DNA from: Ectothiorhodospiraceae bacterium 2226
Lineage (GTDB): Bacteria; Pseudomonadota; Gammaproteobacteria; GCA-013348725
Direction of reading: 5' to 3'
Length of the DNA: 64,000 nt
Assembly: GCA_013348725.1 (NCBI GenBank)
Contig: CP054689.1
Location: 2,228,501-2,292,500 of the forward strand
The translations under genes were made by a program, and so were the position numbers. A model generated the notes under the pieces. It ran no database searches. It saw nothing but the letters and a program-made list of their open reading frames with translations, and had not been told where the DNA came from. Each line of letters opens with the position of its first letter. Position 1 is the first letter of the stretch. Positions 50,028 through 53,841 of this stretch are shown one piece after another.

Positions 50028-52463
50028 ATGAAGACGCCGCAAGCCGGCCGCCGTCGTGCGGTCCGTTCCGAACGCCTCACCCTCGCAGCCATCGCGCTGC
50101 TGTTCCTGGCCGGGTCGGCCTGGTTCGGCTGGGAGCGCGTGGTCCTCGATGGGGCCGGGTGGTTGTTCCCGTCCCGCGCGGCGGCGGACGCCGTGGTGGT
50201 TGTGGGCGTGGATGGTCCGAGCCTGGATGCCCTGGGTCCTTGGCCGTGGCCGCGTCAGCAGGTGGCCGCGTTGCTGGATCGCGTGCATCAGGCCGAGCCT
50301 GTCGCCGTCGGCCTCACGCTACCCTTGCACGGTCCCGACCCCTACGCTGAGCACCACCTGCGCCTGCAGCAGCCCGACGGTCTGTTTCCCGACCACCATT
50401 TCGCCGATCTAGCCCTCGCCGAGGCGCTGCAGCGCGCTGCCGTGGTGCTCGCGATGGCGCCGGGCGAGGAGGCCGCCCCGCGCGTGGGTCGCCTGAAGGC
50501 GGCCGGCGGACTCCGGCCCCTGGCAGTGGATCCGGCCACCATCTGGCTGGATTTTCTGAGCGGTCAACCGCTGCCCCCGCCGTTGACGGCGCACCCGCCG
50601 CTCGCGCCGTTGGCGCGTGCCGCGGCGGGGGTGGGCCCGCTCGGTGCGCGCGCCGACGCCGATGGGCGCGTGCGCCGCGAGGTGTTGTGGTGGCCGGCCG
50701 ACGAGGGCGCCGCGGTCCCCTCGTTCGCAGTGCAGTTGGCGGCCCTCGGGGCGCCCGAAGGTCGCCGTGCCAACGGCCTCGAGGCGCTGCGTGCCGGCTC
50801 GGTGCGCCAAGTGCTGCCCGGCGCGTATCGCACGCGGGCGCAGGACGAGCGGGAGATCGCGCACTACGGCGCGGCCGCGGTGCTGGCGGGCGAAGTGCCT
50901 GCGGAGCGACTGGCCGGTCGGGTGGTGCTGGTCGGGCTGAGCGCGCCCGATCTGGCCGAGGAGGTGACGCTGGCGGGGCGGGGTGTCGTGCCGGATGTTG
51001 TGGGGCAGGCCCACGCGGTGAATGCGCTGCTGGAAGGCGATTACCTTCGGGTGCCGGAGTGGAGCCTGGGGGCACGCCTGGGTGCATTGGTGGCGCTGGG
51101 TCTGCTGATGGTGTGGATCTTTCCGCTCCTGGGCTCGCTGGCCGCCGGTGTGCTGGGCGTGTTGATCGGCCTGGGGCTGCTCCACGGGCAGCTCGTGCTG
51201 CAGGTCCAGCAGGGCTTGTGGGTACCGCTGGGCTGGCCCGCGCTGGCGGTGCTGGTGGCCACCGGGGCCCTATTGTGGCAGCGGCGCCTGCGCGCGGCGC
51301 GGGGCGCGCTGGTGCAGCGTCTGGACCAGACCGAGCGGGAGTTCGGCAAAGTGCTGCAGGGGCAGGGTCGGCTGGAAGAGGCCTTCGAACGCTACAAGCA
51401 TTGCGTGCCCGATGCGGACCTGCTGGAACGCTTGTATACGCTGGGGCAGGAGTACGAGCGCCGCCGCGCCTATGTGCATGCGGTGGAGGTGTTCCGCTTC
51501 ATCGCCGCGCACGATCCCGCGTACGGCGATGTGGATCAGTTGATTCGCCGCAACCGCCGCAAGGCCAAGGTCATCGCGCAGCGGGCGGAGACGGGCGGCG
51601 GCGGCACGGTCGGCCCCTACCGCATCGAGCGCGAGATCGGCCGCGGAGCCATGGGGGCGGTGTACCTCGCCTACAACCGGCGCACGCGGGCGCAGGTGGC
51701 GCTGAAGACCCTGGTGCTGACCGGCGAATCGGAGGCCTCGGCGCTCGATGAGGTGCGCGCGCGCTTCTTCCGCGAGGCCGAGGCCGCCGGGCGCCTCGAC
51801 CACCCGAACATCATCGCGGTGCACGATGTGGGCGAGGAGCGCCAGATCGCCTACATCGCCATGGACTATCTGGACGGCAGCAACCTGCTGCGGTATACCG
51901 AGCAGGCCCAGCTGCTGCCGGCCGGGACGGTGTTCGAACTGATGATTCAGGTCGCCGACGCGCTCGGCTATGCCCATGACCAAGGCGTGGTGCACCGCGA
52001 CATCAAGCCGGCCAACATCCTGTACGACGTCAAGACGGGTACCGCGAAGGTCGCCGATTTCGGCGTCGCGTCCTTGACCGGCTCGGGCAACACGCGCACC
52101 GGCACCATCCTCGGCAGCCCCTCGTACATGTCGCCCGAACAGCTCACCGGCGCGCGGGTCGACGGACGTTCGGACCTGTTTTCGCTCGGGGTGACCTTCT
52201 ATCAGTTGCTCACCGGCGAGCTGCCGTTCGCCGGCGACTCGCTGCCCAACATCATGTACCGCATTACGCACGACAAGCATCCGGACGTGCGCGAGCGGCG
52301 TCCGGAGCTGCCTTCCTGCGTCACGAAGTTGCTGAACAAGATGCTCCACAAGGACCCCGAGCGTCGCTATCCCGACGGTCATTACCTGGCTCAGATGCTG
52401 CGCAAGTGCCGCGCGCATCTCCCGGAAGAGGACGAGGCGTGTACGCAAAAGGCCTGCGGATAG
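50028..52463 (+). CDS. CHASE2-domain serine/threonine protein kinase
   Basis: An 811-residue membrane kinase. A helix at about 14-32 leads to a periplasmic CHASE2 sensor (about 40-335: VVVVGVDGPSLDALGPWPWPR, then VVLVGLSAPDLAEEV), three helices (about 343-420), a helical linker with TPR-like spacing (about 430-520), and a Hanks-type kinase: GPYRIEREIGRGAMG from about 528, HRDIKPAN with catalytic Asp658, ADFGVASL, and SPSYMSPEQ. CHASE2 domains sense extracellular cues in bacteria, ligands unknown. No clear ribosome site precedes the ATG. Overlaps the phosphatase gene by 25 bases. Confidence 0.92.
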   Translation: MKTPQAGRRRAVRSERLTLAAIALLFLAGSAWFGWERVVLDGAGWLFPSRAAADAVVVVGVDGPSLDALGPWPWPRQQVAALLDRVHQAEPVAVGLTLPLHGPDPYAEHHLRLQQPDGLFPDHHFADLALAEALQRAAVVLAMAPGEEAAPRVGRLKAAGGLRPLAVDPATIWLDFLSGQPLPPPLTAHPPLAPLARAAAGVGPLGARADADGRVRREVLWWPADEGAAVPSFAVQLAALGAPEGRRANGLEALRAGSVRQVLPGAYRTRAQDEREIAHYGAAAVLAGEVPAERLAGRVVLVGLSAPDLAEEVTLAGRGVVPDVVGQAHAVNALLEGDYLRVPEWSLGARLGALVALGLLMVWIFPLLGSLAAGVLGVLIGLGLLHGQLVLQVQQGLWVPLGWPALAVLVATGALLWQRRLRAARGALVQRLDQTEREFGKVLQGQGRLEEAFERYKHCVPDADLLERLYTLGQEYERRRAYVHAVEVFRFIAAHDPAYGDVDQLIRRNRRKAKVIAQRAETGGGGTVGPYRIEREIGRGAMGAVYLAYNRRTRAQVALKTLVLTGESEASALDEVRARFFREAEAAGRLDHPNIIAVHDVGEERQIAYIAMDYLDGSNLLRYTEQAQLLPAGTVFELMIQVADALGYAHDQGVVHRDIKPANILYDVKTGTAKVADFGVASLTGSGNTRTGTILGSPSYMSPEQLTGARVDGRSDLFSLGVTFYQLLTGELPFAGDSLPNIMYRITHDKHPDVRERRPELPSCVTKLLNKMLHKDPERRYPDGHYLAQMLRKCRAHLPEEDEACTQKACG

Positions 52464-53185
52464 CGGGCGCCACCGATCCGGGGTGCGTGCGCGAGCGTAA
52501 CGAGGACGCCGTGCGCTGGAGTCGGCGCGCGGGCGTCGCGGTGCTCGCCGACGGCATGGGCGGTCACCTTGCGGGCGATGTGGCGAGCAGCATGGCCGTG
52601 GACCTGTTGGGGGCCGAGCTCGAGGCACTGGTGCGACGCGTCAAGGGGGATCCGGGTGAGGTGCTGCTCGGTATCCTGCAGGCGATCGAACACGTGAACG
52701 GGGAGATCTATGCCACGGCCCGGAGCCAGCCGCAGTACGCCGGCATGGGCACCACCGTGGTGGCCGCGGTGTTCGCGCACGGCTGGCTGACGGTGCTCCA
52801 TGTCGGCGACTCCCGCCTCTACCGTCTGCGGGGCGGCGTGTTGGAGCAACTGACCGTCGACCACTCATTGCTCCGCGAATTGGGCGCGAGCGCCACGCCG
52901 CAGGAGCGAGCGGTGCTGGAGATGGCGGGCCGCAATATCATCACCCGTGCGCTGGGCATCGCGCCCGAGGTGGAGGCGGATGTACAGCAACAGGGCGTGG
53001 AGGCGGCAGACCTTTACCTGCTTTGCTCCGACGGCCTCAGCAACCTGCTCGACGAGGACGACCTGCTGCGCCTCGCCAGCGCACCGCGCGGCTCCCTGAA
53101 TGAACGCGTGAAGCGCTTGGTGGCACTGGCGCGCGAGCGTGGCGGGGACGACAACATCTCCGTTATTCTGGTCGAAGTGCCGTAG
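52439..53185 (+). CDS. PP2C-family serine/threonine phosphatase
   Basis: A 248-residue metal-dependent phosphatase that should reverse the neighbouring kinase. Segments in order: ATDPGCVRERNEDAV near residue 8, VLADGMGGHLAGDVAS near 33, GTTVVAA, HVGDSRLYRLR near 122, ITRALG, LLCSDGLSNLL and GGDDNISVILV, with all usual metal Asp residues. Start is GTG 52439, with AGAGGA seven bases upstream; it lies inside the kinase gene end, so the two are translationally linked. Confidence 0.93.
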   Translation: MYAKGLRIAGATDPGCVRERNEDAVRWSRRAGVAVLADGMGGHLAGDVASSMAVDLLGAELEALVRRVKGDPGEVLLGILQAIEHVNGEIYATARSQPQYAGMGTTVVAAVFAHGWLTVLHVGDSRLYRLRGGVLEQLTVDHSLLRELGASATPQERAVLEMAGRNIITRALGIAPEVEADVQQQGVEAADLYLLCSDGLSNLLDEDDLLRLASAPRGSLNERVKRLVALARERGGDDNISVILVEVP

Positions 53186-53211
53186 AACACGAGAACCTAG
53201 GGGCAAACGCA

Positions 53212-53841
53212 ATGGCGAAGCTACTGCTGGTGGTGGAGGGGGTGGTTACGCGCGATGTGCCGCTCGAGAGCGAGCGGCTGACCATCGGACGCGCGGCGGG
53301 CAATGACATTCAGCTCGGTGACAGCACCGTCAGCGGGCGCCACGCCGCCATCTCTCGGCTGCAGAACTACTACGTGGAGGACCTGGGGAGCACCAATGGG
53401 ACCCTGGTCAACGGCAAGAGCATTCAGCGGCGCATGCTGCACCACGGTGACGTCATCCGCATCGGGCGCCATGAGCTGCGCTTCGAGGAGGCCGCAACCC
53501 CCGACTTCACGCGCACGGTCGTGATCCCTCCCGCGCAGGCGCCGACCCCGGAACTGCCTTCCGGGAAGCTGGCCGCGCTGCATGCCCTGAAGGGGCCGCA
53601 GAAGGGCGAGGTCGTCGAGCTCACCAAGCCGTTTACGACCGTGGGCGAGCCGGGCGTGCAGGTCGCAGTGGTGGCCCGTCGTGCGCAGGGCTATTTCCTG
53701 ACCCGGGTCGGCGGCGCGCCCGGCAAGGCGCTCAAGGTCAACGGGCAGGTCCTCGACGGGACCAGCCATCATCTGCAGGACGGCGATCGGATCGAGATCG
53801 CGGGCAGTACCTTGGAGTTCTGCGTCGCCGGCGACGACTGA
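53212..53841 (+). CDS. FHA-domain protein
   Basis: A 209-residue protein. The N-terminal half (about 20-90) is a good FHA domain: IGRAAGNDIQL, SGRHAAIS and DLGSTNGTLVNG are the phosphothreonine-binding residues. A Pro/Ala linker leads to a second, more divergent FHA-like half (about 117-205: VNGQVLDGTSHHLQDGDRIEIAGSTLEF) lacking the full set of binding residues. It probably reads phosphorylation by the kinase two genes upstream. Cytosolic. Third gene of the kinase-phosphatase-FHA set. Confidence 0.9.
   Translation: MAKLLLVVEGVVTRDVPLESERLTIGRAAGNDIQLGDSTVSGRHAAISRLQNYYVEDLGSTNGTLVNGKSIQRRMLHHGDVIRIGRHELRFEEAATPDFTRTVVIPPAQAPTPELPSGKLAALHALKGPQKGEVVELTKPFTTVGEPGVQVAVVARRAQGYFLTRVGGAPGKALKVNGQVLDGTSHHLQDGDRIEIAGSTLEFCVAGDD

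What the first reader, a model, noticed from the sequence alone, without database searches (positions are those of the whole stretch)
50028..53841. CHASE2 kinase, PP2C phosphatase and FHA reader as a self-contained signalling set
A membrane kinase with a periplasmic CHASE2 sensor, a phosphatase overlapping it by 25 bases, and a two-part FHA protein follow each other. This is writer, eraser and reader. There are no type VI secretion genes nearby, with which such trios often occur. The target is unknown; adjacent genes are aspS and ruvCAB.
Basis: partly seen in the sequence, partly recalled or inferred. Interest (0 to 1): 0.5.

Follow-up and report, generated by a model that had tools for sequence, protein, structure and literature searches.

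The report
T6SS-free kinase–phosphatase–FHA signalling operon
Three neighbouring genes make a membrane-bound protein kinase, the phosphatase that can undo its work and a small protein that reads the phosphate mark; the set recurs in many bacteria away from type VI secretion genes, and the reader protein carries a conserved site that looks like a built-in on/off switch.

Summary
In detail: CHASE2 kinase (50028-52463), PP2C (52439-53185, 25-base overlap) and FHA protein (53212-53841). The trio is no oddity: among 368 other sampled genomes of the class, 58 carry the same ordered trio, none with TssC on the same contig; nine of those 58 genomes have a T6SS, no more than expected. In 7 of the 58 it also sits between aspS and the ruv genes; other phyla have it too.

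The FHA protein is an intact phosphothreonine-binding FHA plus a pseudo-FHA without the pocket, joined by a disordered linker with a near-invariant threonine (56 of 59) in a motif like the self-ligands of GarA, OdhI and DgcB. Proposed mechanism, inferred: the kinase phosphorylates the linker Thr, FHA1 captures it, PP2C resets. Against it: the window keeps only a loose form of the motif, its kinase lacks the docking-like motif of most relatives, and its kinase tree conflicts with that of its partners. Target unknown. New variant of a known kind.

The parts
50028..52463 (+). CHASE2-containing transmembrane Hanks-type Ser/Thr kinase, 811 aa
50082..51104 (+). CHASE2 domain, residues 19-359, predicted periplasmic sensor between TM1 and a C-terminal TM cluster
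   Evidence: Pfam; helices 5-28, 346-367, 370-395, 402-446; mean pLDDT 68
51372..51587 (+). helical juxtamembrane region, residues 449-520, strongly conserved, TPR-like in look (name is my reading, no family hit)
51618..52370 (+). protein kinase domain, residues 531-781; activation-loop T689 and T691 invariant in 10 of 10
52439..53185 (+). PP2C Ser/Thr phosphatase, GTG start, overlaps the kinase gene by 25 bases
53212..53841 (+). two-part FHA protein, 209 aa
53212..53487 (+). FHA1, residues 1-92, pThr pocket R27 S41 T61 N62
53515..53517 (+). linker T102 in F-T-R-T-V-V-I, candidate regulatory phosphosite
53569..53826 (+). pseudo-FHA, residues 120-205, without pThr-binding residues, with its own conserved motif
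49320..49949 (+). flanking alpha/beta hydrolase; present beside one other aspS-linked trio (L161) only; not counted as part of the system
53959..54708 (+). flanking yebC; not counted as part of the system

Best explanation
This is a T6SS-independent phosphosignalling operon of a conserved type. A periplasmic signal acts on the CHASE2 domain and changes the activity of the cytoplasmic PknB-like kinase. The kinase phosphorylates T102 in the disordered linker of the FHA protein. FHA1 then binds pT102 in the same or a neighbouring molecule, as in GarA and OdhI, which changes what FHA1 and the pseudo-FHA can bind. The PP2C removes the phosphate and resets the switch. Shown here: gene set, order and conservation; catalytic and pocket residues; absence of T6SS; near-invariance of the linker threonine in a motif like known FHA self-ligands. 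Inferred: that this kinase phosphorylates T102, that FHA1 binds it, that the PP2C dephosphorylates it, the direction of the effect, and a downstream partner.
For: Trio in order on one strand in 58 of 102 CHASE2-kinase regions, from 58 of 368 other sampled genomes. The PP2C+FHA tree puts the window with the seven other aspS-linked trios, support 98. No TssC or TssK in the genome; TssC in 9 of 58 trio genomes against 61 of 310 others, odds ratio 0.75, p 0.58. FHA1 pocket residues R27, S41, T61, N62 in 59 of 59. Position 102 is Thr in 56 of 59 trio proteins, Ser in 2, Pro in 1, and Thr in 20 of 20 of a second set that includes Burkholderiales, a Mariprofundaceae, two Elusimicrobia and a deltaproteobacterium, inside a linker otherwise poorly conserved and of very low model confidence (residues 97-113). 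Motif phi-x-x-T-x-phi-phi in 52 of 59 trio linkers (shuffled: mean 2.0, maximum 7); strict phi-E-x-T-x-phi-phi in 48 of 59 (shuffled mean 0.12, maximum 2). PMC6733907 (passages seen) gives hydrophobic residues at -3, +2, +3 and Glu at -2 for the self-peptides of GarA/OdhI and DgcB. Best solved-structure matches: FHA1 to GarA/OdhI, including the PknB-GarA complex 6i2p; kinase to StkP and PknB; phosphatase to Stp1 and PstP.
Against: The window's own linker has only the loose motif: Thr, not Glu, at -2. Its kinase is one of 5 of 45 assessable trio kinases without a T-phi-phi-phi motif just before the kinase domain (14 of 59 kinases could not be assessed), and that motif also occurs in CHASE2 kinases outside the trio (L126, L142, L194), so it is not specific to docking of this FHA protein. 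Seven of 59 trio linkers lack the loose motif. Co-variation of pocket and motif looks strong when counted raw (96 of 120 with the pocket, 0 of 13 without; p 1e-8) but rests on about three independent pocket losses and is not significant on the tree: the motif differs in 0.7 of 3 independent pairs on average. The kinase tree does not group the window with the aspS-linked kinases (AU p 0.006; the row is long and of odd composition), against the PP2C+FHA tree. No target gene is linked to the operon.
Confidence: 0.55

Rival explanations
1. The FHA protein is a plain bridging adaptor: FHA1 binds phosphothreonines of the kinase itself or of third proteins and the pseudo-FHA recruits a client to the membrane kinase; T102 is only one of several phosphosites and there is no self-capture.
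For: Trio kinases carry T-phi-phi-phi motifs before the kinase domain in 40 of 45 assessable cases (shuffled mean 2.4) and strict phi-E-x-T-x-phi-phi in 28 of 47 (shuffled mean 0.2), so FHA1 has candidate ligands other than its own linker; the pseudo-FHA has a conserved motif of its own.
Against: The window's kinase lacks that motif while its FHA linker keeps the threonine; the linker Thr is the best conserved residue of the linker.
Confidence: 0.25
2. The trio is a relict or moonlighting T6SS threonine phosphorylation pathway, derived from PpkA-PppA-Fha after loss of the secretion system.
For: Same three activities; such sets are known from T6SS loci (search listing).
Against: No TssC or TssK in the genome; 0 of 102 CHASE2-kinase contigs bear VipB and trio genomes have T6SS no more often than others (many contigs are short); FHA scores 49.7 bits against a cut-off of 120.25 for TagH. 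I did not build a tree with PpkA kinases.
Confidence: 0.06
3. The window's trio is a mixed set: the phosphatase and FHA genes are of the aspS-linked lineage but the kinase gene was exchanged for a distant CHASE2 kinase, so the circuit may be rewired or decaying.
For: PP2C+FHA tree: window inside the aspS-linked group, 98. Kinase tree: that group plus window rejected, AU p 0.006; in the larger tree the window kinase stands with 19 kinases outside the trio (96). The juxtamembrane motif is missing.
Against: The window kinase is a long branch of odd composition, its nearest rows by path are aspS-linked kinases, and the aspS-linked kinases are not one clade even without it; fast evolution explains the same facts. 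All catalytic residues are intact.
Confidence: 0.14

Closest known systems
PknB-PstP-GarA of mycobacteria and PknG-OdhI of corynebacteria
   Same: Hanks-type kinase, PP2C phosphatase and an FHA protein with a Thr motif that FHA can bind in cis; GarA/OdhI, PknB and PstP are among the best solved-structure matches.
   Different: CHASE2 sensor, no PASTA; the Thr lies in a linker after FHA1, not in a tail before it; a pseudo-FHA follows; the three genes lie together.
T6SS threonine phosphorylation pathway (PpkA-PppA-Fha)
   Same: Kinase, PP2C and FHA reader as a set (search listing and starts of abstracts; rest recalled).
   Different: No T6SS in this genome; FHA protein far under the TagH cut-off.
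DgcB of Bdellovibrio
   Same: FHA domain that recognises a peptide of its own protein with the same residue pattern around Thr (PMC6733907, passages).
   Different: The output is a diguanylate cyclase and the peptide is an N-terminal tail.
CHASE2 Ser/Thr kinases of cyanobacteria
   Same: CHASE2 fused to a Ser/Thr kinase (PMC2176072, passages).
   Different: No operon with PP2C and FHA appears in the passages seen.

Membership tests
T6SS threonine phosphorylation pathway | T6SS core genes in the genome | tested here: not met
   No TssC/VipB and no TssK in G000; E. coli control positive in each
T6SS threonine phosphorylation pathway | FHA protein of TagH type (TIGR03354) | tested here: not met
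   49.7 bits against a cut-off of 120.25
Stk1/PknB PASTA kinases (NF033483) | score over cut-off; PASTA repeats | tested here: not met
   273.3 bits against 450; no PASTA among the Pfam matches
Hanks-type Ser/Thr kinases (PF00069) | Pfam cut-off; Lys, HRD and DFG | tested here: met
   189.9 bits over 31.7; residues invariant
Stp1/IreP PP2C phosphatases (NF033484) | score over cut-off | tested here: not met
   224.5 bits against 230, a narrow miss
PP2C phosphatases (PF13672) | Pfam cut-off; acidic metal-binding residues | tested here: met
   55 bits over 24; motifs invariant in 59
GarA/OdhI (NF041660) | score over cut-off | tested here: not met
   52.9 bits against 200
GarA/OdhI | intact phosphothreonine pocket | tested here: met
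   R27 S41 T61 N62
GarA/OdhI | Thr motif in a tail before the FHA domain | tested here: not met
   the protein starts with FHA1; the motif lies after it
GarA/OdhI | phosphorylation-dependent self-binding | not testable with these tools
   needs biochemistry
CHASE2 receptors (PF05226) | Pfam cut-off | tested here: met
   126 bits over 26.3; the only CHASE2 in the genome

The most novel reading that the evidence does not exclude
A widespread, uncharacterised proteobacterial counterpart of the PknB-PstP-GarA circuit: one operon in which a CHASE2 receptor kinase throws a phospho-switch built into the linker of a tandem FHA/pseudo-FHA adaptor. In relatives whose kinases carry the same Thr motif, FHA1 first docks on the autophosphorylated kinase and is then released by self-capture; the pseudo-FHA is a phosphate-independent output arm.
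Probability: 0.33. Interest if true: 0.62.

Novelty: new variant of a known kind. Interest (0 to 1): 0.42.

Why it matters
Ser/Thr phosphosignalling in proteobacteria is studied mostly through T6SS control (my knowledge; search listing). A compact writer-eraser-reader operon that recurs in many families without T6SS, with one near-invariant candidate phosphosite, gives a defined and cheap biochemical test: three purified proteins and one point mutant. If the switch is real, it would be a GarA-like circuit outside Actinobacteria with a new layout, and the pseudo-FHA would be the handle for finding its target.

Tried and rejected
T6SS link: rejected for this genome and not enriched in the class. 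It rests on TssC and TssK only; many contigs in the sample are short, so 'no VipB on the same contig' is a limited statement.

Pocket-motif co-variation as proof of self-binding: the raw count is striking but phylogeny leaves about three independent events, so I do not use it as support.

Kinase juxtamembrane Thr motif as a docking site specific to the trio: weakened, since non-trio CHASE2 kinases have it too and the window does not.

The aspS-yebC-ruvCAB surroundings as a clue to function: 7 of 58 trios share the place but the other 51 do not, so I read it as a lineage position and not as a functional link. A CHASE2-only match beside the trio in 27 of 58 regions, a CHASE2 cyclase in 3 of 4 checked, might be functional elsewhere, but this genome has no second CHASE2 protein.

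Promoter and terminator scan: nothing above chance. The kinase model is of modest confidence (pLDDT 68) and I did not search it. Literature: searches for CHASE2 with kinase, FHA, phosphatase, cyclase or operon terms found no description of this trio; subscription papers are mostly not held. The organism was not identified.
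Full report
WHAT IS THERE. On the + strand, 50028-52463 encodes an 811-residue protein with CHASE2 (residues 19-359) and a protein kinase domain (531-781); 52439-53185 a PP2C phosphatase whose GTG start overlaps the kinase gene by 25 bases; 53212-53841 a 209-residue FHA protein. A structure model of the kinase, of modest confidence, gives one membrane helix before CHASE2, three helices after it and a helical stretch (449-520) before the kinase domain; that stretch is among the best conserved parts of ten relatives. The immediate flanks are an alpha/beta hydrolase and yebC, with aspS and ruvCAB beyond.

IS IT A T6SS SET? The window lies in a genome of one contig, 2,956,257 bases. 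TssC/VipB and TssK are absent, with E. coli positive as control. In a sample of 369 genomes of the class I took the 102 best listed matches of the kinase outside the window, fetched 8 kb on either side where the contig allowed and looked for the three genes with profiles built from these loci. Result: 58 regions with kinase, PP2C and two-part FHA in order on one strand, 3 with a single-FHA protein in its place, 5 with kinase and PP2C, 7 with kinase and an FHA protein, 29 with kinase only. The 58 come from 58 different genomes; this is a lower bound, since contig ends cut some regions and weaker matches were not followed. TssC occurs in 9 of these 58 genomes and in 61 of the other 310 (odds ratio 0.75, p 0.58); none of the 102 contigs bears TssC. 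So the trio does not go with T6SS.

HOW FAR IT REACHES. In 7 of the 58 the trio sits between aspS and yebC or ruv genes as in the window (L120-L124, L131, L161; in L131 no yebC match was seen); six of these seven have a further short FHA gene behind it, which the window lacks. A tree of joined PP2C and FHA proteins puts the window with these seven, support 98. In 27 of the 58 regions another protein matches the CHASE2 part only; of four checked, three are CHASE2-cyclases. Named loci with kinase, PP2C and two-part FHA in order include Acidovorax delafieldii, other Burkholderiales, a Mariprofundaceae, Woeseiaceae, two Elusimicrobia and a deltaproteobacterium. In three further genomes (L225, L230, L239) a kinase with PP2C and two-part FHA was found through the FHA protein.

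THE READER PROTEIN. FHA1 has all pocket residues (R27, S41, T61, N62; 59 of 59). The second half aligns with the first as a profile (probability 96.4%, E 1.1e-9) but lacks the stretch that bears the Ser and His of the pocket and has its own conserved motif around GVQVAVI-RR-GYF. The model gives two beta domains (most residues over pLDDT 90) and a linker of very low confidence, 97-113. In that linker position 102 is Thr in 56 of 59 trio proteins and 20 of 20 in a second set. The consensus F-E-K-T-M-I-I has hydrophobic residues at -3, +2 and +3 and Glu at -2, the pattern reported for the self-peptides of GarA/OdhI and DgcB (PMC6733907, passages). The strict pattern is in 48 of 59 linkers against 0.12 in shuffled linkers, the loose one in 52 of 59 against 2.0. 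The window has F-T-R-T-V-V-I: the loose pattern only. GarA, OdhI and the PknB-GarA complex are the nearest solved structures of FHA1.

MECHANISM. From this I propose a GarA-like phospho-switch: signal, CHASE2 kinase, phosphorylation of T102, capture of pT102 by FHA1, changed partner binding, reset by PP2C. Every step after the gene anatomy is inference. In most relatives the kinase has T-phi-phi-phi motifs just before the kinase domain (40 of 45 assessable; shuffled mean 2.4; strict motif 28 of 47), which could dock FHA1 before transfer; the window's kinase lacks them and non-trio kinases also have them. The activation-loop Thr pair T689/T691 (invariant in ten) is an alternative dock, by analogy with PknB (recalled).

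RESULTS AGAINST. The co-variation test (motif in 96 of 120 proteins with pocket, 0 of 13 without) fails once the tree is taken into account. Seven of 59 linkers lack the motif. The kinase tree rejects grouping the window with the aspS-linked kinases (p 0.006), against the PP2C+FHA tree: either the kinase gene was exchanged or it evolved fast (its branch is the longest). The genome holds a second kinase-PP2C pair and a second two-part FHA protein between radA and corC-like genes (names from my reading), so 'self-contained' is not proven; that paralogue has neither pocket nor motif.

VERDICT. The set is neither a T6SS appendage nor a singular find, but a widespread trio of known parts in a layout that I did not find described. 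It is a new variant of a known kind, of moderate interest because it leads to one clear experiment.

Noticed in passing
G000:C1:2745183 (L223:6839-7444, -); also L273, L275-L277, L280, L282, L283, L285, L286, L289-L292: A two-part FHA protein beside radA and/or a corC-like gene recurs in many genomes, nearly always with a damaged phosphothreonine pocket: a conserved FHA-like protein that probably no longer reads phosphate.
   Followed up: partly
L246, L249, L251, L253, L258, L274: Near radA there are two-part FHA genes with intact pocket and, in five of the six (not L249), a PP2C beside them but no matching kinase within about 3 kb.
   Followed up: no
L127:3784-6072, L148:10045-12285, L159:11569-13797 and other trio regions: A CHASE2 protein with a cyclase domain next to the trio: a possible link of Ser/Thr phosphorylation with cyclic nucleotides sharing a sensor type.
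   Followed up: partly
G000:C1:1160493-1162321 (L222:8493-10321): Second, soluble-looking kinase directly followed by a second PP2C, outside the window.
   Followed up: no
L254-L257, L259, L263, L265-L270, L272: Another group of two-part FHA proteins with a linker motif Y-E-P-T-M-F-[IVL] lies about 2 kb from a different kinase.
   Followed up: no
window 1714-9009: Run of transketolase, GAPDH, PGK, pyruvate kinase and class II aldolase genes.
   Followed up: no
window 10546-15922: TreT-like trehalose synthase next to a 1354-residue protein with two CBM48 and two alpha-amylase matches, perhaps a fusion.
   Followed up: no
window 20417-22897: LigD with phosphoesterase, ligase and polymerase domains.
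   Followed up: no
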